From Sphaerisporangium siamense (GTDB lineage Bacteria > Actinomycetota > Actinomycetes > Streptosporangiales > Streptosporangiaceae): 64,000 bases of DNA. The stretch lies in contig NZ_JACHND010000001.1 in the NCBI RefSeq assembly GCF_014205275.1, forward strand, positions 5,208,001 to 5,272,000. The letters run 5' to 3'. Within the stretch, counting starts at the first letter, position 1. Each line of letters starts with the position of its first letter. This document shows, piece after piece, positions 5,772 to 63,614 of this stretch. Position numbers and translations under genes: made by a program. Under the pieces are notes generated by a model. That model worked only from the letters and a program-made list of their open reading frames with translations, did not search any database and was not told the origin of the DNA.

Positions 5772-6524
5772 ATGTCCGGCCACTCCAAATGGGCGACGAC
5801 GAAGCACAAGAAGGCCGCGCTGGACGCCAAGCGGGGCAAGCTTTTCGCCAAGCTCATCAAGAACATCGAGGTGGCGGCCCGCACCGGCGGCCCGGACGCG
5901 GACGGTAACCCCACCCTCTACGACGCCATCCAGAAGGCGCGCAAGAGCTCGGTGCCGATCGAGAACATCGAGCGCGCGCGCAAGCGCGGCGGCGGCCTGG
6001 AGGCCGGCGGCGCCGACTGGCAGACCATCATGTACGAGGGGTACGCGCCCGGCGGCGTGGCCGTGCTGATCGAATGCCTCACCGACAACCGCAACCGCGC
6101 GGCGTCGGAGGTCCGCGTGGCCATGACCCGCAACGGCGGTTCCATGGCCGACCCCGGCTCGGTGGCCTACATGTTCAACCGCAAGGGCGTCGTCATCGTC
6201 CCGAAGAGCGGCGGCCTGGGCGAGGACGACGTGCTGACCGCGGTCCTGGACGCCGGGGCCGAGGAGGTCAACGACCTCGGCGAGTCGTTCGAGGTCGTGT
6301 CCGAGGCCGGCGACCTGGTGCCGGTCCGCAAGGCGTTGCAGGAGGCCGGCATCGACTACGACTCGGCCGAGAGCAGCTTCCTGCCCACGCTGAGCGTCCC
6401 CCTGGACGAGGACGGCGCGCGCAAGGTGTTCCGCCTGATCGACGCGCTGGAGGACAGCGACGACGTGCAGAACGTCTACGCCAACTTCGACGTCAGCGAC
6501 GACGTCCTCGCCAAGCTGGACTGA
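5772..6524 (+). CDS. YebC/PmpR-family protein
   Basis: The 250-residue protein begins [25 protein letters not shown], the invariant family N-terminus, and keeps [22 protein letters not shown] in the middle domain and the three-domain length. The family was long annotated as transcriptional regulators. More recent work (established knowledge, recalled) links members to relieving ribosome stalling at proline stretches. Placement behind pdxT and before the SOS-type ruvCAB operon is conserved among actinobacteria. GAGGGAG upstream of ATG 5772 overlaps the end of pdxT. Confidence 0.93.
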
Positions 6525-6561
6525 GTCGGAAATCGGTTCGCCCGGTTAGGTGGGCTTCGCC

Positions 6562-6578
6562 TAGGTTTGTCCGTTGTG
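6562..6578 (+). promoter_or_regulatory. Putative -10 element and leaderless start of the Eis-like gene
   Basis: TAGGTT at 6562-6567 lies eight bases before GTG 6576. There is no Shine-Dalgarno sequence, so a transcript starting at or next to the GTG would be leaderless. This also argues against the TTG at 6567, which overlaps the -10 box. Confidence 0.35.
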
Positions 6579-7760
6579 CAGATCCGTGACCTGACGCCCG
6601 GCGACCTGGACGCCGTGCTGGACAACCGCAAGCGGGCGTTCGGCCCCCTGTCCGCGAGCAGCGTCGCCACATGGCGTTCCCTGGTCGCCCCGGCCCTCCC
6701 CGAGGGCCGCTACCTCGGCGCCTTCGACGGGGGGCGGCTCGTCGCCACCAGCCGGATCAACCACTACGAGCAGTGGTGGCACGGCCGCCCGCTCTCGATG
6801 GGCGGCATCGCGGGCGTCACCGTCGCGCCCGAGGACCGCGGGCGCGGGGTCGGCGGCCTGCTGATGCGGGCCACCATCGAGCGCTGCGCCGAGCTCGGCC
6901 ACGCGGTCTCGGCGCTGTACCCCACCACCACGCCGCTGTACCGCGGCGCGGGCTGGGAGCACGCGGGCGCCCGCCTGCGCGTCACCGTGCCCGCCGAGAG
7001 CCTGCGGGCGCTCGCCCCCCGCGACACCGCCGTCGCGGTGCGGCGCGCCGGGCCCGGCGACGCCGCCGAGATCCGGGCCCTGCTCGGGCGTCTGCACGCC
7101 GCCACCCGGGCCTGCGGCCCCGTGGTCGAGGAGGAGCGGGTGCTGCGCCTCTGGCTGGAGGACGACGACGACTTCGCCTATCTCGCCGCCGACGGGTTCC
7201 TGCTGTACCGCTGGGACGGCGACGGGCTCGACGTGGACAACCTCGTGGCCGGCTCCGAGGCCACGGCGCGCGCCCTGTGGTCGCTGGCCGGCAGCGCCTC
7301 CTCGGTGGCCGCCACGGTGACGGCGACCGTCGAGCCGGACGACCCCATGCTGTGGCTGGCGCGCGACCGCTCCACCGACACCGTCGAACGCACGGGGTGG
7401 ATGCTCCGGATCATCGACCTGCCCGCCGCCGTGGCCGGGCGCGGATACCCGGCCGGGGCCGCGCTGGACGCCGTCGTCGAGGTGAGCGACCCGCGGCGTC
7501 CCGCGAACTCCGGCGCCTGGCGCCTGTCGGTCGCCTCGGGCCGCGGCGAGGCCGTCCGCGTGGGCCCGCTTTCCGGCGGGCCGGGCCGGCCCGGTGCGGA
7601 GGTCACCCGGCTCACCGTCGGCGGCCTGTCGGCCCTGTTCGCGGGCGTCGGGGTGAGCGCCCTGCGCCGCGCCGGGCTGGTGACGGGCGGCACGCCCGCG
7701 ACCGACGACCTGCTCGCCTGCGCCTTCGCCGCCAAGCCCTACATGATCGACTACTTCTGA
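6576..7760 (+). CDS. Eis-family GNAT N-acetyltransferase
   Basis: The 394-residue cytosolic protein has the three-part Eis layout. The N-terminal GNAT fold contains the acetyl-CoA loop VAPEDRGRGVGGLLM (about residues 86-100). A second GNAT-like region follows, with paired acidic and aromatic residues. The SCP2-like C-terminal domain ends YMIDYF, whose terminal carboxylate is part of the Eis active site. Eis enzymes acetylate amines, including aminoglycosides and protein lysines, but the natural substrate here cannot be read from sequence. It stands alone between yebC and ruvC. GTG 6576 is preferred over TTG 6567 because of the leaderless promoter layout. Confidence 0.88.
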   Translation: MQIRDLTPGDLDAVLDNRKRAFGPLSASSVATWRSLVAPALPEGRYLGAFDGGRLVATSRINHYEQWWHGRPLSMGGIAGVTVAPEDRGRGVGGLLMRATIERCAELGHAVSALYPTTTPLYRGAGWEHAGARLRVTVPAESLRALAPRDTAVAVRRAGPGDAAEIRALLGRLHAATRACGPVVEEERVLRLWLEDDDDFAYLAADGFLLYRWDGDGLDVDNLVAGSEATARALWSLAGSASSVAATVTATVEPDDPMLWLARDRSTDTVERTGWMLRIIDLPAAVAGRGYPAGAALDAVVEVSDPRRPANSGAWRLSVASGRGEAVRVGPLSGGPGRPGAEVTRLTVGGLSALFAGVGVSALRRAGLVTGGTPATDDLLACAFAAKPYMIDYF

Positions 7761-7824
7761 CCGCGGCGTGACAGGCCCGGGGCGGCCCGGTGTGTCGGAG
7801 GGTGCGCGGCCGCGGCGGCCGGAG

Positions 7825-7851
7825 TAGAGTTCGGGGCCGAACAGATGTTCG
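7825..7851 (+). promoter_or_regulatory. LexA operator (SOS box) of ruvCAB with overlapping promoter
   Basis: CGAACAGATGTTCG at 7838-7851 is a perfect match to the actinobacterial/Bacillus LexA consensus CGAAC-N4-GTTCG. A -10-like TAGAGT sits at 7825-7830, so the operator would cover the transcription start. That is the usual geometry for repression, 23 bp before the ruvC start. I infer DNA-damage induction of ruvCAB. Confidence 0.85.
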
Positions 7852-7873
7852 GCGTTCTTGGGGAGGCGTGCCG

Positions 7874-8434
7874 GTGCGGCTACCGGAGCTGAGGGTCATG
7901 GGGGTCGATCCCGGCCTCACCCGGTGCGGCCTCGGCGCCGTCGTGGGCCGCGCGGGCGCGCCGCTCACCCTCGTCAAGGTCGGTGTCGCGCGCACCCCCG
8001 CGGGCGACGACATCGGCGCGCGCCTGGCCGCCATCGAGGTCGAGATCGAACGCTGGCTCGACGAGGTCAGGCCCGACGCGGTCGCCGTCGAGCGCGTCTT
8101 CAGCCAGAGCAACCTGCGCACCGTCATGGGCACCGCCCAGGCGTCCGCCGTGGCCATCCTGTGCGCCGCGCGCCGCGGCCTGCCCGTCGCGCTGCACACC
8201 CCTTCCGAGGTCAAGGCCGCCATCACCGGGTACGGCAACGCCGACAAGGCCCAGGTCGGCACCATGGTCACCCGCCTGCTCCGCCTCGACGCCATGCCGA
8301 AACCGGCCGACGCCGCCGACGCGCTCGCGCTCGCCATCTGCCACATCTGGCGCGGCGGAACCCAGAACCGCCTGGCCGCGGCCCTCGCCAAGGCCAGGCC
8401 CGCCGCCGTGCCCGCGAAGGGAACCGCCCCGTGA
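7874..8434 (+). CDS. ruvC: Crossover junction endodeoxyribonuclease RuvC
   Basis: RuvC is the Holliday-junction resolvase, a homodimer that nicks four-way junctions with RuvAB. From GTG 7874 it is 186 residues; GGGGAGG at 7860-7866 lies 7 bp upstream, while GTG 7868 is too close to that site. The acidic active site is intact: Asp in [12 protein letters not shown], Glu in VAVERVF, and the two Asp of [13 protein letters not shown]. The C-terminus is a short Ala/Pro tail. It overlaps ruvA by 4 bp (GTGA) and heads the LexA-controlled ruvCAB operon. Confidence 0.96.
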
Positions 8435-9051
8435 TCGCCTCCGTCTCCGGGCGCGTCGCCGGCCTCGCCCCCGACTCCGCCGTGGTGGAGGTCGGCGGCG
8501 TCGGCGTCCTGGTCCACTGCACCCCGGCGACGCTCGCGTCGCTGCGCGCCGGCGAGGAGGCCAGGCTCGCCACCTCCCTGGTGGTCCGCGAGGACTCCCT
8601 CACGCTCTACGGCTTCGCCACCGACGACGAGCGCACGGTCTTCGAGATGCTCCAGACCGCCTCCGGGGTCGGCCCCAGGCTGGCGCTGGCCATGCTCGCC
8701 GTCCACACGCCGAACGCCCTGCGGGTGGCGGTGGCGAGCGCCGACGTCAAGGCGCTGACCATGGTGCCGGGCATCGGCCAGAAGGGGGCCCAGCGCATCA
8801 TCCTGGAGCTGAAGGACAAGCTCGGCACGCCGGACGAGGCGGTCGACGCCGCGCTCAACGGGCGCGCCCGCAGGCAGGCGTGGCGCGACCAGGTCCACTC
8901 CGGCCTGGTCGGGCTCGGGTACTCCTCCAAGGACGCCGACGAGGCCGTCGCCGTCGTCGCGCCCCAGGCGGACGCCGACGAGGCCGCCGGCCGGGAGCCG
9001 TCGGTCGCCACCCTCCTGAAGGCGGCCCTGCGGGCCCTGAGCGTGCGATAG
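8431..9051 (+). CDS. ruvA: Holliday junction DNA helicase subunit RuvA
   Basis: RuvA binds four-way junctions as a tetramer and loads RuvB. The 206-residue protein has the N-terminal OB fold ([34 protein letters not shown]) with the acidic-pin region. Two helix-hairpin-helix motifs follow ([13 protein letters not shown] and [20 protein letters not shown]). A C-terminal three-helix RuvB-contact domain is joined by a flexible linker. GTG 8431 overlaps the ruvC stop, and ruvB follows after 9 bp. Confidence 0.96.
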
Positions 9052-9060
9052 GGGCCCGCG

Positions 9061-54711: not shown

Positions 54712-54750
54712 TGACAGCCGCCTGACAGTCGCATGACAGCCCCGTCATGA
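54712..54750 (+). promoter_or_regulatory. TGACAG direct repeats phased at 11 bp (putative OmpR-family operator)
   Basis: TGACAG occurs at 54712-54717, 54723-54728 and 54734-54739, exactly 11 bp apart, with an imperfect fourth unit TCATGA at 54745-54750. One-helical-turn spacing of identical half-sites is the signature of OmpR/PhoB-family response-regulator binding. It lies in the 97-bp gap before the extracellular multicopper oxidase operon. Confidence 0.65.
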
Positions 54751-54788
54751 AGCGTGGCCGTCCGGCGGGCCGCTCCGATGATCCGAGC

Positions 54789-57700
54789 ATGAGGAGAGCT
54801 CGAGCAACGCGCCGCCGTGGGCCGGTCCTGTGGGCCGCGATCACCGCCCTGGTCATGGCGATGGCGCCCGTGCTCGGGGTGACGCCGCCCGCCGGGGCCC
54901 AGGCGGGCTCGATCACCATCGAGGCGCGCGACCTCGCCACGGGCGCGGCCCTGCCGGCGTTCCAGTACCTGGTCAACCTGGACAACTCACGCCTGCCGGC
55001 CGACCCCGACCCGGCCCTTCGCACCGGCGTCGCCGCCACCGAGAGCAACAGCCCCATCGTCGCCAAGGGCGACCAGAGCAGGCCCGCCGTCGACCTGCCC
55101 GACGGCCGCTACCTGATCTCGGTCCGGGCCGCCGGCCACAAGATGTGGGGCCGGCACATCACCCTGCCGCGCGACGCGGGGACGGTCCGCGTCGATCTGT
55201 CGGAGGCGAGCGAGGCCCACCCCCTGCCCCTCGGCAAGATCCGCGTCTTCGTCTTCGACGACTCCCGGTGGACCAACGGCGCCCCGGACACCGGCGAGGC
55301 CGGGCTCGCAGGCTTCCAGGTCACCCTGCGGGAGCAGACCGACTCCCAGGTCTCGGTCGACTACCACAACGAGCCGCTGTGCGGCGGCGACTGCCGCACC
55401 TCCTCCGACGGGTTCGTCCAGATCGACGACCTCGGCCCCGCCACCTACTTCATCTACGTGACGCCCCCCGACCACTGCGGCCGCGACGGTTCCGGCACCT
55501 GGACCCAGACCACCACCATCGACGGCGGCGTGGGACTCCAGGCCGGCGTCGAGGAGGGCAGCGACGGCACCGGCGCCCCCGGCGAGGCCCTGTGGGAGCC
55601 GCCGGACCGCCGCACCGGCTACTGGTTCGGCTTCGTCTGCACGGCGACCGACTTCCCCGCGCCCGGCACCGGCTCCATCAGCGGCACCGCCAAGAACTGG
55701 AAGGCGTGGCCGCCCTTCGAGGTGCTGTCCACCGCCGAACCGGTCGAGAACCCGTACGTGGCCCTGACCAGCAGCGCCAACGACACCACCGTCTACGTCG
55801 GCCGCGGCGACGCCGACGGCGGGTTCCGCGTCCCGCGCGTGCCGCCCGGCTCCTACATCCTGTCGATCTGGGACGAGCAGCTCAGCTACATCATCCGCTT
55901 CCTCCCCGTCGACGTCCCCGCCGGGCGCAACGTGGACCTCGGCGACGTGGGCGTGTCCCGCTGGTTCGGCTGGCTGTCCGGCCACGTCTACCAGGACACC
56001 GGCGTCGCCAGGAACGGCGCCGCGCTGCCCGCGGGCAGCAAGGGCAACGGCGTCCGCGACTGCGCCGACCTCGGCGACGAGGACACCTGCGAGCCCGCCG
56101 TCCCGAACACCGACGTCGACCAGCGCTGGCGCGACGGCTCCATCAAGGACGCCACCTTCACCGACGCGCAGGGCCGCTACGAGTACACCAACGCCGAGGG
56201 CGGCCCGCTCGGCAAGTGGTTCATCGGCGAGACCGGCTTCTCCCGCTTCGGCACCACGGGGGCGTCCGTCCACAGCGAGTACGACCGCACCCGCGCCACC
56301 CCCGTGCCGACCGACGCCGGCGGCGGCCTGCTGACCAACCAGCTCGTCATCGAGGGCCACCACAGCGAGGTCGACTGGGGCAAGTACCAGTACGCCGACG
56401 ACGAGCCCGGCCAGATCGTCGGCATCACCTACTTCGCCACCACCCGCAACGAGTTCGACGCCCGCATGCAGGTCCACGAGGACTACGAGCCCGCCATCCC
56501 CGGCGTCACCGTGCGGCTGGAGGGCCCCGGCCCCGACGGCGTGCCCGGCACCGCCGACGACCCCGTGCTCAACGAGTACGTCACCGACCACTGGCGACCC
56601 TCCGAGGACTGCGACGTCCTCGACAAGGACGGCAAGGACATCGGGGTCCAGCTCCACCCGCTGATCGGCCCCAGGTGCGTGGAGGTCCCCGCCACCGGCA
56701 ACGAGACCAAGGACGCGGCCTTCGACGGCGGCTACGCCTTCTCCGACTACTGCCCGCCCGCCACCGGCGGCTTCGGCCACTTCGACGACGAGGGCGACAC
56801 CGTCTGCCGCGACGGCAGCGCGCCCGTCCCGCTCGTGGCCGGCACCTACATCACCCACGCCGTCATGCCGGCCGGCGGGAACGACGACCGGCCGTGCAAC
56901 CCGGCGGGGGAGAAGTACGTCAGCGGCCCCGGCGGCGCCGGCTGCCTGTACCGCCCGGTGCGCGAGGAGGACGTCAACGTCGACCTCGGCGCCCAGTTCA
57001 CCCCGGCCATCCCGCCGCCCGCCTGCGCCGGCGACCCGCACGTCATCGACCAGTCGACGCTGACCCCGCGCAGCCCCTACTACGGCGTCACCCCCAGCCC
57101 CTCCCGGCCGCTGTGCGACAAGCGGCTGGTCGTGCTGCGGAACAAGCAGAACGCCAACGCCGACTTCTTCCTGATGACCGCGTTCAAGAACGGCCCGGAC
57201 GTCGCCGAGCCGGGCCGCATCGTCGGCCTGGTCTCCGACGACATCTACTTCGACCGCGACGCCAAGTCCATCTGGTACGGCGAGCCGCGGCCCATCGGCA
57301 AGATCCCCATCGGGATCCGCGACTACAACCGGCGCCTGATCACCACGGTCACCACCAGCGAGAACGGCGCCTACGAGGCCCTGCTGCCCTCCACCGAGAC
57401 CTACAACTGCCCCATCCCCCAGGGACCGTGCCCGGGCATGTACGTCGTGGTCGTCAACGACCCCGGCGACAAGGCGCACCCGAATCCCACCTTCAACCCC
57501 GACTATCTGACGGCGAGCTTCGCCTGGGACGTGTGGCCCGGCCAGACCGACCAGCTCGACACGCCCCTCGACCCGATCTCCGGCACCGCCTGCGAGCTCC
57601 CCGTCAACACCCCCGAACTGCTCCAGGTGTCCAAGCCGTACGTCACCGCGGGCGATCCGGCCGAGGCCCGCCAGATCACCATCCAGGGCGACTTCTTCGG

Positions 57701-59666
57701 CGCGGCACCCGGCTCGGTCGTGCTCGGCGACCCGGCGACCGTCCAGACCCGCGTGCTGACGGTCGCCAACGGAGGCATCGTGAGCTGGGGCGACCGCAGC
57801 ATCGTGATGCGGGTCCCGGCGACCGGCGTCCTGCCGGCGCAGATCCGGCCGGGGCCGAAACAGCTCACCGTCCGCACCGCGGCGGGCGTCCCCACGCCCA
57901 ACGGCCTCACCCTGCACGTGCGCGGCGACGCGGGCGGCGTCAGCTACCTGCCGCCCGTCGTGAACGTCGCCGGCCCTGACGCCCCGGGCGCGATCCAGAG
58001 CGCCGTCAACGCCGCCGCCGACGGCAGCCTGCTCGTGCTCAGGCCCGGCGTCTACCACGAGAACGTCCTGCTCTGGAAGCCGCTCATCCTGCAGGGGGTC
58101 GGCCCCGGCGGCCTGGTCGGCGCCCGCGAGCAGCAGGAACGCGCCCCCGAGGACCCGAGGTTCGACATCCCCGGCACCGTCATCGACGGGCGTTTCTTCC
58201 ACGACGACAAGCCCACCTGGACCGCCGCGCTGGCCGCGGCCGGCACGCTGGCCGGCGTGGACGCCGACCATCCCGTCCTCGAAGGGGCGGGCATCACGGT
58301 CGCCGCCAAGACCCCCACCGCCTTCCCCGCAGGGATGCGCGCGGCCCGCATCGACGGCCTCGCCATCACCACCGGCCAGGGACAGGGCGCCGGAGGCGTC
58401 CAGCTCCAGGCGTACGCCGCCAACCTGCAGATCACCAACGACGTCCTGGAGAGCGACGGAGGCATCTTCGCCGGCGGCATCGGCATCGGTCAGCCCTACT
58501 ACGACTCCCACAACACCGGCGTGCGGATCGCCCACGACCGCGTCATGGGCAGCGGCGGCCTCACCCGCTCCGGCGGCATCGGCGTCTTCCGCGGCTCCGG
58601 CGGCTACGAGATCGCCGACAACGTCATCTGCGGCAACTTCGGGGTCGAGTACGGCGCCGGCATCTCGCACTGGGGCCTGTCACCCGGCGGCTCCATCCAC
58701 GACAACAAGATCTACTACAACGATTCGGTCGACTCCGGGGCCGGCGTCACCATCGCCCAGGAGGTCCCCCAGCCCCTGCCCGACGGCACCACCCCGCTCG
58801 GCGACGGCTCCGGCGCCGTCGACCTCGACCGCAACGTGATCCAGGCCAACTACTCGGGCGATGACGCCGGCGGCCTCTTCGTCGAGGGCGCGCACACCGC
58901 GCGCGTCAACGTCCGCAACAACATGATCGTCGACAATGGGGCGGCCGACATCGGCGGCGCCGTCCTGCTGGACGACTCCGCCAACGTCGCCCTGGTCGGC
59001 AACACCGTGGCCAACAACGTGTCCACCGCCTCCTGCGAGACCTGCGACACCACGCCGCACGCCGCCGGGCTCGCCGCCGAGGCCAACGACCCGCTCTTCC
59101 AGGCCACCCTGCCCCCGGGCGCGCCCAAGTTCTCCGACCCGGTCGCGCTGTTCGGCAACATCTTCTGGCACAACCAGGCCTACACCCTCAGCCACCCCGG
59201 GCCCGGCGCCACGCTGGTCTCCGAGGGCTACATCGACATGGAGGTGCACGGCACCACCGGCGCGGCCGACACCTTCACGCCCCGCTACTCGCTGCTCGGC
59301 GCCGCGACGATCCGCGGCTCGGACGGGGCCGACCACCCGCTGCCCGGCGGCCAGGGCAACATCGTCGGCCAGGACCCGCGGTTCGTCCTGCCCTACACGC
59401 TGGAACTGGCGGTCGCGGGCTCGCGCCTCGACCCGCAGATGGCCGCGGTCACCATCACCGGGCAGGACCCGCCCGTCGGCCTCGCCGGCGACTACCACCT
59501 CCGGCCGACCTCACCGGCGATCAACAAGGGCCCCACCTACGGCGACTACCCGGCCCCGAGGACCGCGACCAGCGTCCCGGCGCCCGCCGTCGACATCGAC
59601 GGCCAGGCGCGCCCGGCCGGCCCCCTGCCCCTTCCCTTCGATCTCGGCGCGGACGAGGTGCGATGA
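54789..59666 (+). CDS. Giant secreted multidomain protein: CNA-B-like modules, IPT/TIG-like module, right-handed beta-helix
   Basis: From ATG 54789 the protein is 1,625 residues (ATG 54747 would add 14). A basic n-region and hydrophobic helix (GPVLWAAITALVMAMAPVLGV) end at PAGAQA, a Sec signal. Residues about 40-930 are successive beta-sandwich modules of the CNA-B/carboxypeptidase-regulatory type, with repeated GxxxPGSYxL and YEYTNAEG-like ends (RVPRVPPGSYILSIWD; QGRYEYTNAEG) and many Asp-rich, Cys-containing loops. Residues about 940-1045 resemble an IPT/TIG fold (QITIQGDFFGAAPGSVVLG). From about 1060 a pectate-lyase-like beta-helix begins with AIQSAVNAAADGSLLVLRPGVYHENVLL. No sortase signal or TM anchor is seen. 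The multicopper oxidase gene follows after one base. Confidence 0.82.
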   Translation: MRRARATRRRGPVLWAAITALVMAMAPVLGVTPPAGAQAGSITIEARDLATGAALPAFQYLVNLDNSRLPADPDPALRTGVAATESNSPIVAKGDQSRPAVDLPDGRYLISVRAAGHKMWGRHITLPRDAGTVRVDLSEASEAHPLPLGKIRVFVFDDSRWTNGAPDTGEAGLAGFQVTLREQTDSQVSVDYHNEPLCGGDCRTSSDGFVQIDDLGPATYFIYVTPPDHCGRDGSGTWTQTTTIDGGVGLQAGVEEGSDGTGAPGEALWEPPDRRTGYWFGFVCTATDFPAPGTGSISGTAKNWKAWPPFEVLSTAEPVENPYVALTSSANDTTVYVGRGDADGGFRVPRVPPGSYILSIWDEQLSYIIRFLPVDVPAGRNVDLGDVGVSRWFGWLSGHVYQDTGVARNGAALPAGSKGNGVRDCADLGDEDTCEPAVPNTDVDQRWRDGSIKDATFTDAQGRYEYTNAEGGPLGKWFIGETGFSRFGTTGASVHSEYDRTRATPVPTDAGGGLLTNQLVIEGHHSEVDWGKYQYADDEPGQIVGITYFATTRNEFDARMQVHEDYEPAIPGVTVRLEGPGPDGVPGTADDPVLNEYVTDHWRPSEDCDVLDKDGKDIGVQLHPLIGPRCVEVPATGNETKDAAFDGGYAFSDYCPPATGGFGHFDDEGDTVCRDGSAPVPLVAGTYITHAVMPAGGNDDRPCNPAGEKYVSGPGGAGCLYRPVREEDVNVDLGAQFTPAIPPPACAGDPHVIDQSTLTPRSPYYGVTPSPSRPLCDKRLVVLRNKQNANADFFLMTAFKNGPDVAEPGRIVGLVSDDIYFDRDAKSIWYGEPRPIGKIPIGIRDYNRRLITTVTTSENGAYEALLPSTETYNCPIPQGPCPGMYVVVVNDPGDKAHPNPTFNPDYLTASFAWDVWPGQTDQLDTPLDPISGTACELPVNTPELLQVSKPYVTAGDPAEARQITIQGDFFGAAPGSVVLGDPATVQTRVLTVANGGIVSWGDRSIVMRVPATGVLPAQIRPGPKQLTVRTAAGVPTPNGLTLHVRGDAGGVSYLPPVVNVAGPDAPGAIQSAVNAAADGSLLVLRPGVYHENVLLWKPLILQGVGPGGLVGAREQQERAPEDPRFDIPGTVIDGRFFHDDKPTWTAALAAAGTLAGVDADHPVLEGAGITVAAKTPTAFPAGMRAARIDGLAITTGQGQGAGGVQLQAYAANLQITNDVLESDGGIFAGGIGIGQPYYDSHNTGVRIAHDRVMGSGGLTRSGGIGVFRGSGGYEIADNVICGNFGVEYGAGISHWGLSPGGSIHDNKIYYNDSVDSGAGVTIAQEVPQPLPDGTTPLGDGSGAVDLDRNVIQANYSGDDAGGLFVEGAHTARVNVRNNMIVDNGAADIGGAVLLDDSANVALVGNTVANNVSTASCETCDTTPHAAGLAAEANDPLFQATLPPGAPKFSDPVALFGNIFWHNQAYTLSHPGPGATLVSEGYIDMEVHGTTGAADTFTPRYSLLGAATIRGSDGADHPLPGGQGNIVGQDPRFVLPYTLELAVAGSRLDPQMAAVTITGQDPPVGLAGDYHLRPTSPAINKGPTYGDYPAPRTATSVPAPAVDIDGQARPAGPLPLPFDLGADEVR

Positions 59667-59667
59667 C

Positions 59668-60852
59668 ATGAGACGAAGGGACCTTCTCAAGGCGGGGGCC
59701 CTCACGGGCGGCCTGCTCGTCGGAGGGCGGGCCCTCACCGGCACGGCCCAGGCCGCCGGGCAGACCAGGATCTCCCTCGCCGGGACCGACGGCCACATCA
59801 TCCTCCCCGGCCGGGCCCCGCTGTACGTGTTCGGGTTCGTCGCGGTGCCGGCGACCATGTCCGTCAACGACCTGGTCGCCACCTACAAGGGCAAGGCGCG
59901 GCACGTCTCGCCCGTCCTCGACGTCAAACAGGGCGACGACGCCTATATCACCCTCACCAATCTCGGGCTCGTCGGGCGGCCCGACCTCGTCGACTCCCAC
60001 ACCATCCACTGGCACGGCTTCCGCACCCCCACCGCGCTGTTCGACGGCGTGCCCGAGGTGTCGGTCGGCGTGCCGATCCACCGTCAGTTCACCTACTTCT
60101 ACCGCCCGCACGACCCGGGCACGTACATGTACCACTGCCACTTCGAGGACGTCGAACATGTGCAGATGGGCATGACCGGCATCGTCTACGTCCGGCCCGC
60201 CCAGGACGGCGACCCGGCCCCGGACCCGCTGCACCGGACCACCACCTACGCCTACAACGACGGCGACGGCTCCACCGCCTACGACCGGCACTTCGCGATC
60301 CTGCTCAACGAGATCGAGGAGCGGGAGCACGACGCCGACGAGCAGATCCAGGAGTTCATCTTCACCGACTACGACCCCCAGTACTTCACGATGAACGGCC
60401 GGGTCTACCCGCAGACCGTCCTCCCGGCGGGCGACCCCTCGCTGCCCTACCAGCCGGTCTCGTCGCTGATCCAGGCCAACCCCGGCGACCGGGTGCTGCT
60501 GCGGCTCGCCAACCTCGGATACCTGCAGCACGCGATGCAGCTCCCGGGGATCCCGCTGAAGGTCGTCGGCGAGGACGCCACGCTCCGCAGGGCGCCGTAC
60601 GTCACCAACACCCTCTACATCGGCCCCGGCGAGGCGCGCGACGTGCTGTTCACCGCCCCGCCGTTCAACCCCTCCGCGCCGGTCGCCTCCGACGCCCGGG
60701 GACCGTACAACGCCTACCTGTTCAAGAACCGGGACTTCCGGCGCCTGACCAACCGCGGCGCTCCGGGACTCGGCGGCATGGTGACGGAGGTCAGGGTGTA
60801 CCAGGGGTCGCCGCTGCCCGCGCAGACCGTGGTGGGGGAGACCTATGCGTAG
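59668..60852 (+). CDS. Tat-exported multicopper oxidase, copper site in first domain only
   Basis: The 394-residue protein has a Tat signal MRRRDLLKAGALTGGLLVGG. The first cupredoxin domain carries HTIHWHG (residues 111-117) and HCHFEDVEHVQMGM (156-169). Together these supply the type 1 ligands (His111, Cys157, His164, Met169) and two HxH pairs (114/116, 156/158) for a trinuclear centre. Cys157-His164 spacing is seven, against five in classical laccases. The second cupredoxin domain has only LQHAMQ where HPxHxHG would be expected, so it cannot complete the cluster alone. ATG 59668 follows the giant gene by one base, and it overlaps the next gene by 8 bp. Confidence 0.87.
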   Translation: MRRRDLLKAGALTGGLLVGGRALTGTAQAAGQTRISLAGTDGHIILPGRAPLYVFGFVAVPATMSVNDLVATYKGKARHVSPVLDVKQGDDAYITLTNLGLVGRPDLVDSHTIHWHGFRTPTALFDGVPEVSVGVPIHRQFTYFYRPHDPGTYMYHCHFEDVEHVQMGMTGIVYVRPAQDGDPAPDPLHRTTTYAYNDGDGSTAYDRHFAILLNEIEEREHDADEQIQEFIFTDYDPQYFTMNGRVYPQTVLPAGDPSLPYQPVSSLIQANPGDRVLLRLANLGYLQHAMQLPGIPLKVVGEDATLRRAPYVTNTLYIGPGEARDVLFTAPPFNPSAPVASDARGPYNAYLFKNRDFRRLTNRGAPGLGGMVTEVRVYQGSPLPAQTVVGETYA

Positions 60853-62515
60853 GCACCTGCGCGCGGCGGCGGCCGCGGCCGCCGCCCTCCTCGTCGCGTT
60901 CGCGCCCGGCGCCCACGCCCAGGCCCCTGCGCCGCCGCGCCAGGGCCTCGTCTGCGCCGACGGCCCCGACTTCGACCTGACGGCGACCCGCGGCCACACC
61001 GAGACCCCGGACGGCAACAGCGTCCTGATGTGGAGCTACGCCCTCACCGGCGGCGCCTTCCAGAGCCCCGGCCCCGTGCTCTGCGTCGAGCAGGGCGCGA
61101 CGGTCACGGTCCGCCTGCGCAACGAGCTCACCGAACCCGTCTCGATCGTCTTCCCCGGCCAGACCGGGATCCGCGGCAGCGGCAGCCCCGGGCTGCTGGC
61201 CGACGAGGCGCCCCCCGGCGGCCAGGCCACCTACACCTTCACCGCCGCCGAGCCCGGGACCTACGTCTACGAGAGCGGCACCGACCCGGCCAAGCAGGTC
61301 GAGATGGGACTCTACGGCGCGCTCGTCGTCCGCCCGGCCGGGCACCCCGACCACGCCTACGACGCGGCGACCCGGTTCGACCCCCGCCGCGAATACCTGC
61401 TCCTGCTCAGCGACATCGACCCCGACCTGCACCACGCCGTGGAGACCGGCGCCCCCTACGACTTCGGGACGCTGCGCAACCGGTACTTCGCCATCAACGG
61501 GCGCCAGTTCCCCGACACCCTCCAGGACAACGGCGTCTCCTGGCTGCCCGCGCAGCCGTACGGCGCGCTCGTCCGCGTCAAACCGTACGACGCGACCGGC
61601 AACCCGCTGCCCGCGCTGATCCGGATGGCCAACGTCGGCACGCTCAACCACCCCTTCCACCCGCACGGCAACCACATCAAGGAGATCGCCCAGGACGGCA
61701 GGCCGCTGCGGACCCCGGCCGGCGGCGACGCCTCCGGCGACCACTTCGCCGCCACCATCGGCACCGGGCAGACCGAGGACTACCTGTTCTCCTGGACCGA
61801 CCAGGACTCCTGGGACGCCGGGAGCAACCCCCTGCCGTCCTCCGTGGCCGCCCCCGACTACCGCAACCTGGACTTCAAGGACGGCGACACCTGGTCCAGC
61901 GGCGGCGCCTACCTCGGCGCCAAGGGCACCCTGCCCGTGGGCACCGCCTCGCAGAACATCTGCGGCGAGTGGTACTTCCCCTGGCACAGCCACGCGCTCA
62001 ACGAGTTCACCAACTACGACGCGGGCTTCGGCGGCATGGCCACCCTGTTGCGGGTGGACCCGCCCGGCGGGTGCGCGTCCGCCGCGGGCTCCGCCGCCGT
62101 CACGGCCGGCGTCCTCGACTCCGGCAACGCCGCCGCGCTCGCCGCCGCCGACGCCTCCTACTACCGGGTCGCCTCGACCGCCACCGGCACCACCGACTGG
62201 CACGGCGGCTTCGCCGGCGTCCCCGCCGGATCCACCGCCCTCACCGTCACCTACACCGGCCGCGACTCGCTCGCCGGTCTGCCCACAACGCTGTGGATCT
62301 GGAAATGGTCCACCGGCACCTGGACCCAGCTCGGCGCCGCCACCCCCGTCGGCACCACCGACACCACCCTGACCAGAACCGTCCCGGCCCCCGAGTCCCC
62401 CTACATCGGAACAGGGGCCAACGCCGGCAAGGTACGCGTCCGCGTCCTCACCACCGGCGCCGCCCCCTTCACCACGCAGGGCAACCTGCTCAAACTCACC
62501 TACGACGCGCCATGA
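60845..62515 (+). CDS. Exported multicopper-oxidase-like protein lacking the type 1 cysteine
   Basis: The 556-residue protein has a Sec signal ([25 protein letters not shown]). Its first cupredoxin-like domain has lost the ligands: PVSIVFPGQ replaces HWHG and YVYESGT replaces the second motif. Its later domain has HPFHPHGNH (residues 269-277) and WHSHALNEF (His381, Ser382, His383), where Ser stands for the type 1 Cys. Thus it offers two HxH pairs but no type 1 copper site. About 150 C-terminal residues form an extra beta-rich domain (SYYRVASTATGTTDWHGGFAGV). GGGGGAG precedes ATG 60845, which lies inside the end of the preceding oxidase gene, indicating coupled translation and a possible heteromer. 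Confidence 0.85.
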   Translation: MRRHLRAAAAAAAALLVAFAPGAHAQAPAPPRQGLVCADGPDFDLTATRGHTETPDGNSVLMWSYALTGGAFQSPGPVLCVEQGATVTVRLRNELTEPVSIVFPGQTGIRGSGSPGLLADEAPPGGQATYTFTAAEPGTYVYESGTDPAKQVEMGLYGALVVRPAGHPDHAYDAATRFDPRREYLLLLSDIDPDLHHAVETGAPYDFGTLRNRYFAINGRQFPDTLQDNGVSWLPAQPYGALVRVKPYDATGNPLPALIRMANVGTLNHPFHPHGNHIKEIAQDGRPLRTPAGGDASGDHFAATIGTGQTEDYLFSWTDQDSWDAGSNPLPSSVAAPDYRNLDFKDGDTWSSGGAYLGAKGTLPVGTASQNICGEWYFPWHSHALNEFTNYDAGFGGMATLLRVDPPGGCASAAGSAAVTAGVLDSGNAAALAAADASYYRVASTATGTTDWHGGFAGVPAGSTALTVTYTGRDSLAGLPTTLWIWKWSTGTWTQLGAATPVGTTDTTLTRTVPAPESPYIGTGANAGKVRVRVLTTGAAPFTTQGNLLKLTYDAP

Positions 62516-62717: not shown

Positions 62718-63614
62718 ATGAGGACCGCGACGCGGCGCGCCCTGGTGGCCGTCCTCATCGCGGCGGGCCTGACCGTCCCCGCCTCACCCGCCCAGGCGGC
62801 CGACGTATCGATCGACCTCTGCGCCGCCGCGGGCACCCTCGCGCTCCCCGGCCCCGTCACCGTGAACGTCTGGGGCTTCGCCCGCGCCGGCTCCGGCGGT
62901 TCGTGCGCGGGCGTCACCCCGTCGGTACCCGGCCCGGTCCTCACGGCCGGACAGGGCGACGAGGTCTCGGTCGTCCTGCGCAACACCCTGGACACCCCGG
63001 TCTCCCTGGAGATCCCAGGGGTGCCGTTCCGCCAGGGCGCGGGCGTCACCGCCCCGCCCGGCGGCACGGCCACCGCCACCTTCACCGCGTCCGCGCCCGG
63101 CACCTACCTCTACCAGGGGACAGAGCGGCAGCTCCCGATGGGACTGTACGGCGCGCTCATCGTCCGCCCCACGGTGGCGGGCCGCGCCTACGAGCCGGCC
63201 TCCACCGCCTACGACCGTGAGGCGCCACTGGTGCTGTCCGCCATCGACCCGGCCTTCAACGCCGCGCCGCTGTCCGCCGACCTCTACCGGTACGCGCCCA
63301 AGTTCTGGCTCGTCAACGGCAAGGCGTACCCCGACACCGACCCCGTGCACGGCGTCGCGCCGGGGACCAAGGTGCTGCTGCGCTACCTCAACGCGGGCTT
63401 CGACAACACGACGATGCGGCTGCTCGGCGCCTACGAACGGGTGATCGCCCGAGACGCCCACCCACTCGCCGCCCCCTTCGACGCCACCGCCGAGACCATC
63501 CCGGCCGGCGGCACCGAGGACGCCGTGGTCACGATCCCCGCCTCCGGCACCCGCTTCCCCCTCTACAACCGCCAACTCCACAAGACCATGCTGACCTTCC
63601 TCCAAATCCCGTGA
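62718..63614 (+). CDS. Exported cupredoxin-like protein without copper ligands
   Basis: From ATG 62718 the protein is 298 residues and starts with a clear signal peptide (MRTATRRALVAVLIAAGLTVPASPAQA). The frame is open back to 62523, but that stretch is Arg/Pro-rich and unlike a signal. The body follows the multicopper oxidase plan: GPVLTAGQGDEVSVVLRNTLDTPVSLEIPG, GTYLYQGTERQLPMGLYGALIVRP, a second domain with FWLVNGKAYPDTDPVHGVAPG and LLRYLNAGFDNTTM. HxH and HCH motifs are all missing, so it is probably a structural relative and not an enzyme. Its GTGA end overlaps the next gene. No good Shine-Dalgarno precedes 62718, so the start is uncertain. Confidence 0.78.
   Translation: MRTATRRALVAVLIAAGLTVPASPAQAADVSIDLCAAAGTLALPGPVTVNVWGFARAGSGGSCAGVTPSVPGPVLTAGQGDEVSVVLRNTLDTPVSLEIPGVPFRQGAGVTAPPGGTATATFTASAPGTYLYQGTERQLPMGLYGALIVRPTVAGRAYEPASTAYDREAPLVLSAIDPAFNAAPLSADLYRYAPKFWLVNGKAYPDTDPVHGVAPGTKVLLRYLNAGFDNTTMRLLGAYERVIARDAHPLAAPFDATAETIPAGGTEDAVVTIPASGTRFPLYNRQLHKTMLTFLQIP

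What the first reader, a model, noticed from the sequence alone, without database searches (positions are those of the whole stretch)
59668..62515. Split multicopper oxidase: two adjacent genes carry complementary halves of the copper-ligand set
Seen: the first protein has a full type 1 site (His111, Cys157, His164, Met169) and HWH plus HCH pairs in its first domain, but its second domain lacks HxH. The second protein lacks ligands in its first domain but has HPFHPHG and HSH, with Ser at the type 1 Cys position. Together they give four HxH pairs, exactly eight histidines, and one type 1 centre. Known: two-domain laccases build the trinuclear cluster between subunits. Inference: the proteins form a heteromeric oxidase with the cluster at the interface. 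The 8-bp gene overlap fits equal synthesis.
Basis: partly seen in the sequence, partly recalled or inferred. Interest (0 to 1): 0.8.

Follow-up and report, generated by a model that had tools for sequence, protein, structure and literature searches.

The report
Copper oxidase split across three proteins
Three neighbouring genes make three look-alike proteins, of which one carries one half of a copper active site, the second carries the other half and the third carries none, so the working oxidase is probably a three-part ring; the same trio is conserved in three bacterial phyla and looks like a link between simple three-copy copper oxidases and the large one-chain kind such as human ceruloplasmin.

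Summary
P1 (59668-60852) holds a complete type 1 copper site and two HxH pairs in domain 1, none in domain 2. P2 (60845-62515) holds two HxH pairs in domain 2, none in domain 1. P3 (62718-63614) is a third two-domain cupredoxin protein without ligands. All three profiles match type C two-domain multicopper oxidases best (PDB 3g5w, 2zwn); two-domain oxidases are trimers with the trinuclear cluster shared between two chains. The trio recurs in the same order in Actinomycetota, Chloroflexota and Bacillota. Copper ligands are nearly invariant and each family is one clade. A related family keeps all 12 ligands in one chain. One lineage that lost P2 also lost P1's cluster histidines. AlphaFold2 places P1 against P2 confidently (pLDDT 89, pTM 0.87), but no coordinates were returned, so I did not see the histidines converge. 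Best reading: a P1/P2/P3 heterotrimer with one active site at the P1.D1/P2.D2 interface, fed by P1's type 1 copper: a three-gene analogue of six-domain oxidases. Nine searches of an open-licence library found no description. The substrate is unknown.

The parts
54747..59666 (+). Large beta-rich protein (1639 aa: SdrD_B and CarboxypepD_reg above cut-off; Beta_helix, NosD and choice-of-anchor Q below cut-off), conserved upstream neighbour; function unknown
   Evidence: Pfam/NCBIfam; BLASTP hits an adjacent same-strand ORF upstream of P1 in 63 of 80 loci
59668..60852 (+). P1 (394 aa): twin-arginine motif at the N-terminus, domain 1 with the type 1 site and two trinuclear HxH pairs, domain 2 without ligands
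59998..60015 (+). P1 HTIHWH: H111 (type 1), H114 and H116 (trinuclear)
   Evidence: invariant
60133..60174 (+). P1 HCHFEDVEHVQMGM: H156, C157, H158, H164, M169 (two trinuclear His; type 1 Cys, His, Met)
   Evidence: invariant apart from H156 in L044
60845..60852 (+). 8-bp overlap of P1 and P2
60845..62515 (+). P2 (556 aa): hydrophobic leader, domain 1 without ligands, domain 2 with two trinuclear HxH pairs, and about 140 aa of C-terminal extension
61658..61666 (+). P2 H272-P-H274, trinuclear pair
61985..61993 (+). P2 H381-S-H383, trinuclear pair, Ser at the type 1 Cys position
62718..63614 (+).

Best explanation
The three genes encode the three subunits of one multicopper oxidase built like a two-domain (type C) homotrimer, but with three different chains. 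Shown: each chain is a two-domain cupredoxin paralogue of type C enzymes; P1 carries the whole type 1 site and the domain-1 half of a trinuclear cluster, P2 the domain-2 half, P3 nothing; the three genes are kept together in fixed order. Inferred: the ring has D2 of P2 against D1 of P1, where one trinuclear cluster forms; electrons enter at P1's type 1 copper, pass through its Cys-His path to that cluster and reduce O2 to water. P3 closes the ring, and the two other interfaces are dead. The result is a three-gene analogue of one-chain six-domain oxidases, which also have six cupredoxin domains and one trinuclear cluster. By simple leader patterns P1 is mostly a Tat substrate and P2/P3 mostly Sec substrates, so outside Bacillota the site is probably assembled after export. 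The substrate is unknown; the automatic database name 'manganese oxidase' for some members is untested.
For: (1) Ligand partition P1 = domain-1 set, P2 = domain-2 set, P3 = none, against a single-chain related family with all 12 ligands in 12 of 12 aligned rows; complete motifs in 118 of 120 listed hits of that family, the misses being P0259 (456 aa) and P0273 (346 aa). (2) Profile alignments to 3g5w/2zwn put the retained His on the matching HxH/HCH motifs and show which pairs were lost. (3) Fixed order P1-P2-P3: 72 of 83 P1 loci have exactly these two partners next, L072 has P3 broken; ten run out of sequence (7 contig ends, 3 short pieces), and P3 begins in two of these. (4) 9 of 9 whole genomes chosen for holding the trio have only complete trios of it. 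(5) P1, P2 and P3 are each one clade in a quick tree (SH-aLRT 98, 96, 93), with matching main splits in P1 and P2 and largely in P3. (6) In G464 (L159) P2 is gone, and P1 has lost all four cluster His and both type 1 His (Cys and Met remain). (7) AlphaFold2 of P1-P2 of L041: pLDDT 89.1, pTM 0.87, which by the definition of pTM needs a confident relative placement of two bodies that are each about half of the chain. (8) P1.D1-P2.D2 pairs are enriched among the top 200 and 400 covarying P1-P2 pairs beyond a simulated tree null (0 of 60 each), not clearly in the top 50 or 100 (18 and 5 of 60). (9) A gene cluster whose tested members are CopC-CopD proteins lies near 29 of 80 loci, including just past the window end.
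Against: No coordinates were returned, so convergence of the four His pairs was not seen. Foldseek speaks only against the other ring order (4bdv_A, which I recall as four contiguous cupredoxin domains: TM 0.36, rmsd 16.9) and does not itself show the required one; the geometry-based list shows mainly single-subunit matches and no ceruloplasmin among its 50 rows. No control fold of P1-P3 or P2-P3 was run. P3 in the complex rests on conservation only; one MAG locus (L178/G676) has P1-P2 without P3. One MAG (L165/G488) has lost one trinuclear His of P2, and L044 one of P1. The covariation signal is weak (effective number of sequences about 40; simulated columns changed slightly less than the real ones); the log-odds form of the test was reached in 19, 39, 2 and 4 of 60 simulations. 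The Tat model scores 12.1 bits on P1 against a cut-off of 16.7, and the window's own P3 also fits the crude twin-arginine pattern. Stoichiometry, copper content and activity are unmeasured.
Confidence: 0.82

Rival explanations
1. P1 and P2 share the trinuclear cluster, but P3 is not part of the oxidase: the enzyme is a P1/P2 dimer or a 2:1 ring, and P3 is a linked accessory (scaffold or surface) protein.
For: P3 carries no ligand and can bear a long C-terminal extension with an Ig-like match (L029); L178/G676 has P1-P2 without P3; a P1+P2 mixture could also give one complete interface.
Against: P3 is the same two-domain fold family and one clade beside its partners, follows P2 in 26 of the 28 P2-bearing loci (one exception is a contig end) and in every locus with enough sequence, and persists with a degenerate P1 where P2 is gone. 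Known two-domain relatives are trimers (passages of PMC13151041).
Confidence: 0.25
2. There is no shared trinuclear site: P1 is a type 1 copper electron carrier and P2 a separate copper-binding or storage protein, adjacent by history.
For: No biochemical proof of a shared site; P1 alone has a full type 1 site.
Against: All four trinuclear His of P1 and all four of P2 are kept across three phyla although neither half is a cluster alone; the two halves together make exactly one set; P2 loss goes with decay of the P1 ligands in the one case seen; confident P1-P2 model.
Confidence: 0.06
3. A decaying duplicate array: degenerate paralogues of an ordinary homotrimeric enzyme encoded elsewhere.
For: Degenerate loci do occur (L159, L165), and 3 of the 13 P1-bearing genomes also hold a single-chain relative (G466, G485, G487).
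Against: The loss pattern is complementary and fixed, the retained ligands are near invariant, and the three families agree over three phyla.
Confidence: 0.03

Closest known systems
Type C two-domain multicopper oxidases (PDB 3g5w Nitrosomonas europaea blue copper oxidase; 2zwn metagenome laccase)
   Different: There one chain carries all ligands and the trimer is homomeric with three clusters; here the ligands are dealt out over two genes and a third paralogue has none.
Six-domain oxidases: ceruloplasmin, and MnxG of Bacillus (PDB 9bxa)
   Same: Six cupredoxin domains and a single trinuclear cluster at one domain-domain interface.
   Different: Those are one chain; this is three genes. Passages of PMC3600357 place the bacterial cluster between domains 2 and 3 with type 1 copper in domain 2; here the type 1 site is in the first domain of P1. 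Neither is among the 37 PDB sequences matched by the P1 profile at E <= 1e-7; ceruloplasmin does match the P3 profile.
Single-chain relatives found here (e.g. L114/P0242 Pelotomaculum, P0256, P0302; mostly about 460-570 aa, mostly Bacillota where named)
   Same: Domain 1 like P1 and domain 2 ligands like P2; annotated only as multicopper or copper oxidase, some as manganese oxidase.
   Different: All 12 ligands in one polypeptide, so self-sufficient in principle.
Mnx complex (MnxE3F3G) of Bacillus
   Same: A heteromeric multicopper oxidase assembly (passages of PMC5622069).
   Different: MnxG is the multicopper-oxidase chain there; MnxE/F have no known homologues (same passages) and, as far as I recall, do not complete its trinuclear site.
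Heterodimeric fungal laccases (ten papers hold the phrase; search listing only)
   Same: An oxidase with two different subunits.
   Different: As I recall, the large subunit alone carries the copper site and the small one is not a cupredoxin protein; not checked here.

Membership tests
Type C two-domain multicopper oxidase | Two cupredoxin domains per chain | tested here: met
   Each half of the modelled P1-P2 pair matches two-domain copper oxidases or nitrite reductases along its length; the P3 profile aligns over 43-287 of 289 to 3g5w
Type C two-domain multicopper oxidase | Type 1 copper site in the N-terminal domain only | tested here: met
   P1 H111, C157, H164, M169 in domain 1, invariant; no type 1 set in P2 or P3
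Type C two-domain multicopper oxidase | All four HxH pairs in one polypeptide | tested here: not met
   P1 lacks both domain-2 pairs, P2 both domain-1 pairs, P3 all four
Type C two-domain multicopper oxidase | Trimer with the trinuclear cluster between domain 1 and domain 2 of neighbouring chains | tested here: inconclusive
   Confident P1-P2 placement (pTM 0.87) and some P1.D1-P2.D2 covariation, but no coordinates and no trimer model
Six-domain multicopper oxidase (ceruloplasmin/MnxG) | Six cupredoxin domains in one chain | tested here: not met
   Three separate genes in the window; no P1-P2 or P2-P3 fusion among the ORFs of the loci examined
Six-domain multicopper oxidase (ceruloplasmin/MnxG) | One trinuclear cluster per six domains | tested here: inconclusive
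   Ligand count gives exactly one set per P1+P2+P3; the assembly itself was not tested
Type B two-domain laccase (SLAC) | Type 1 site in domain 2 | tested here: not met
   P2 S382 at the Cys position; P1 domain 2 without ligands
Copper nitrite reductase (NirK) | Type 1 plus single type 2 copper, the latter from His of two chains (recalled) | tested here: not met
   P1+P2 keep the full eight-His trinuclear set; NCBIfam Cu_nitrite_red scores 36.4 bits on P1 against a cut-off of 296.3

The most novel reading that the evidence does not exclude
A 1:1:1 heterotrimeric multicopper oxidase in which three diverged paralogues share one active site at one of three interfaces, the type 1 subunit going out by Tat and its partners by Sec. 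It would be an independent, three-gene route to the one-active-site, six-domain plan of ceruloplasmin, and a surviving picture of how two of three clusters can be lost.
Probability: 0.6. Interest if true: 0.85.

Novelty: new variant of a known kind. Interest (0 to 1): 0.75.

Why it matters
[quoted passage not shown] That filter would discard P1, P2 and P3, which may help explain why such an enzyme went unseen. If real, this is a multicopper oxidase whose catalytic cluster is made by two different gene products and probably closed by a ligand-free paralogue. It makes an old idea testable (stated in passages of PMC3600357): that six-domain oxidases arose by triplication of a two-domain unit and lost two of three clusters. 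It also gives an assembly question (how a cluster forms between a Tat-type and a Sec-type chain) and a ready engineering system, since ligands of one site lie on separable chains.

Tried and rejected
Tried without use: the first AlphaFold2 job with 12 paired rows (A2) gave pLDDT 63.6, pTM 0.52, not relied on. Mixed alignments A1 and A5 put rows on the wrong halves (checked), and A4 too, judged from the identities; none was folded. A6 was checked and folded. The three-gene chain A3 (4 rows) was aligned but not folded. Foldseek against viral structures gave nothing that bears on the question. Ceruloplasmin is not listed among the 50 rows; that is no evidence of a different fold.

Rejected: homomeric enzyme (neither chain has a full site); annotation or frame artefact (conserved over three phyla); decayed array (ligands near invariant).

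Rows dropped: the search for related loci kept the best 80 of 156 confirmed stretches, as 79 loci. L087 (minus strand) was not counted among the 83 P1 loci. The tree used 15 of the trio loci plus the window, 12 of 120 single-chain hits and 2 outgroups on long branches, by a quick search without bootstrap. The covariation test used 87 of 98 trios after removing near-identical ones; L159 and L165 were left out beforehand. A first, unsimulated count showed 2.5- to 2.9-fold enrichment of P1.D1-P2.D2 over all inter-protein pairs; the tree null reduced the claim. A6 holds 61 rows out of the larger number of P1/P2 sequences at hand. Some loci repeat places. The neighbour counts cover 80 loci (L006-L085).

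Papers: PMC3600357, PMC5622069, PMC13151041 and PMC3192119 were seen as passages only; all other papers as search listings. Literature searches: (nine of ten allowed; open-licence library only).
Full report
Observation. P1 has H111, C157, H164, M169 and the pairs H114/H116 and H156/H158; P2 has H272/H274 and H381/H383, with Ser382 at the type 1 Cys position. Directly downstream lies a third gene, P3 (62718-63614, 298 aa), also matching Cu-oxidase_3, without any HxH. So the unit has six cupredoxin domains in three genes.

What the proteins are. The best PDB sequence match of the P1, P2 and P3 profiles is the type C two-domain oxidase 3g5w; 2zwn is second for P1 and P3 and third for P2. In those alignments the P1 domain-1 motifs fall on HTIHWHG and HCH of 3g5w, while both of its domain-2 pairs (HAIHTHG, HDH) are replaced in P1. 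In P2 the reverse holds. In P3 all are replaced. In a joint alignment, at 12 ligand columns: single-chain relatives keep 12 of 12 in all 12 rows; P1 keeps the 8 domain-1 columns in 16 of 16 rows and has one His in the 64 domain-2 cells; P2 keeps the four domain-2 His in 16 of 16 and no ligand residue in the other 8 columns; P3 keeps none of the 11 His/Cys columns, with Met once at the axial position.

Conservation of the trio. 79 loci from the genome collection (the best of 156 confirmed stretches), the window's genome and three short pieces from relatives gave 83 P1 loci. In 72 of 83 exactly two related ORFs, P2 and then P3, follow on the same strand; in L072 P3 is broken over two frames; the other ten run out of sequence (seven contig ends, three short pieces), and P3 begins in two of these, L036 and L048. 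Ligand columns: P1 83 of 83 except H156, 82 of 83 (Leu in L044); P2 80, 80, 79 and 79 of 80, the missing cells being gaps; no conserved His or Cys column in 73 P3 rows. In Bacillota, P3 was told from P2 by position, and for five loci by the tree. Nine whole genomes chosen for holding the trio had only complete trios of it, one with three and two with two, besides distant oxidases. Sampled distribution of P1: 3 of 396 genomes of the window's phylum, its own included; 13 of 113 in the class of G453 (a Bacillota genome; one of the 13 degenerate; two more genomes show P2 and P3 ends at a contig start); and 13 of 199 in the class of G459 (a Chloroflexota genome). In further loci taken from those genomes (29 with a P1-type gene, some repeating earlier places), P2 follows in 28 and P3 after it in 26; the exceptions are L159 (below), L178 (P1-P2 without P3 on that contig or elsewhere in the genome) and L186 (contig end). 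L165 has lost one P2 cluster His.

Evolution. P1, P2 and P3 are each one side of a branch (SH-aLRT 98, 96, 93; quick tree, long outgroup branches), and P2 and P3 are sisters. The main splits match: Bacillota against the rest in all three, and the same two subgroups of Chloroflexota and Actinomycetota in P1 and P2; in P3 the rows L026 and L027 sit differently. A separate family, mostly about 460-570 aa and mostly from Bacillota where named, carries all ligands in one chain: 118 of 120 listed hits have all four motifs, the misses being P0259 (456 aa) and P0273 (346 aa). Three genomes (G466, G485, G487) hold both this family and the trio. The simple reading, inferred, is duplication of a self-sufficient ancestor followed by complementary loss, then loss of the rest in P3. 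One natural experiment supports the coupling: in G464 (L159) P1 is followed directly by P3, no P2 is found in the genome (1.8 Mb, perhaps incomplete), and P1 has lost all four cluster His and both type 1 His, keeping Cys and Met.

Covariation. Among 87 distinct trios, P1.D1-P2.D2 pairs make up 1.56 and 1.49 times their share of the top 200 and 400 P1-P2 pairs, against 1.20 (sd 0.14) and 1.18 (sd 0.10) in 60 simulations without coupling along the same tree, with 0 of 60 as high. For the top 50 and 100 the simulations reached the observed value 18 and 5 times; the log-odds form was reached 19, 39, 2 and 4 times of 60. This is weak support.

Surroundings. The protein encoded upstream (54747-59666; SdrD_B, CarboxypepD_reg, weak NosD/beta-helix) finds a similar, adjacent, same-strand ORF upstream of P1 in 63 of 80 loci, Bacillota included; an earlier clustering gave 68 of 80 loci with a member, 61 of them adjacent. 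A cluster of CopC-CopD proteins lies near 29 of 80 loci; two members were tested: L054 (both domains) and the one just beyond the window end in the window's genome (CopC 62.9 bits; CopD 29.8 bits, below its cut-off of 32.1). A simple twin-arginine pattern precedes P1 in 57 of 80 loci, P2 in 2 of 77 and P3 in 5 of 73, the window's P3 among them; a hydrophobic leader precedes most of the other P2 and P3. The curated Tat model scores the window's P1 below its cut-off. P1 of 13 Bacillota loci and P2 of 12 show no leader, so there the trio may be intracellular or on spores (inference).

Mechanism. Inferred: P1's type 1 copper takes electrons from an unknown donor, its Cys157-His156/158 link passes them to a trinuclear cluster made with P2's domain 2, and O2 is reduced there. 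P3 closes the ring. The label 'manganese oxidase' given by one source to some members is an automatic name and was not tested.

Known or new. Two-domain oxidases are trimers with two protomers contributing to the cluster (passages of PMC13151041), and six-domain oxidases carry one cluster in one chain (passages of PMC3600357). A survey removed sequences without four copper regions (passage of PMC3192119). No paper on a split or heterotrimeric multicopper oxidase of this kind was seen in the listings of nine searches of the open-licence library. I therefore rate it a new variant of a known kind.

Noticed in passing
L114, L115, L170-L174; proteins P0242-P0361: A family of mostly 460-570 aa two-domain oxidases, mostly Bacillota where named, with all 12 ligands in one chain; close self-sufficient relatives of the trio.
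   Followed up: partly
L159 (G464) 6066-9058, minus strand: P1 with all cluster His and both type 1 His lost, P2 absent from the genome, P3 retained: a natural co-loss.
   Followed up: yes
window 54747-59666: A 1639-aa beta-rich protein with SdrD_B and weak beta-helix/NosD-like parts is a conserved upstream neighbour of the trio, also in Bacillota; its role (scaffold, surface anchor, metal handling) is unknown.
   Followed up: partly
L006:6500-8347 (just past the window end): CopC-CopD type protein (CopD part below cut-off) downstream of the trio in the window's genome; its cluster lies near 29 of 80 loci.
   Followed up: partly
P3 of many Chloroflexota and Actinomycetota, e.g. L029:12509-15403: P3 can carry a C-terminal extension of 600 aa or more (bacterial Ig-like match in L029), absent from the window's P3.
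   Followed up: no
window 62090-62515: P2 of the window's clade has about 140 aa of C-terminal extension with no Pfam match.
   Followed up: no
G459 (C119, C194, C245), G458, G460: Genomes with three (G459) or two separate complete trios.
   Followed up: no
Bacillota loci such as L068, L073, L081: No leader peptide seen in P1 (13 loci) and P2 (12 loci) of Bacillota, unlike the versions elsewhere.
   Followed up: no
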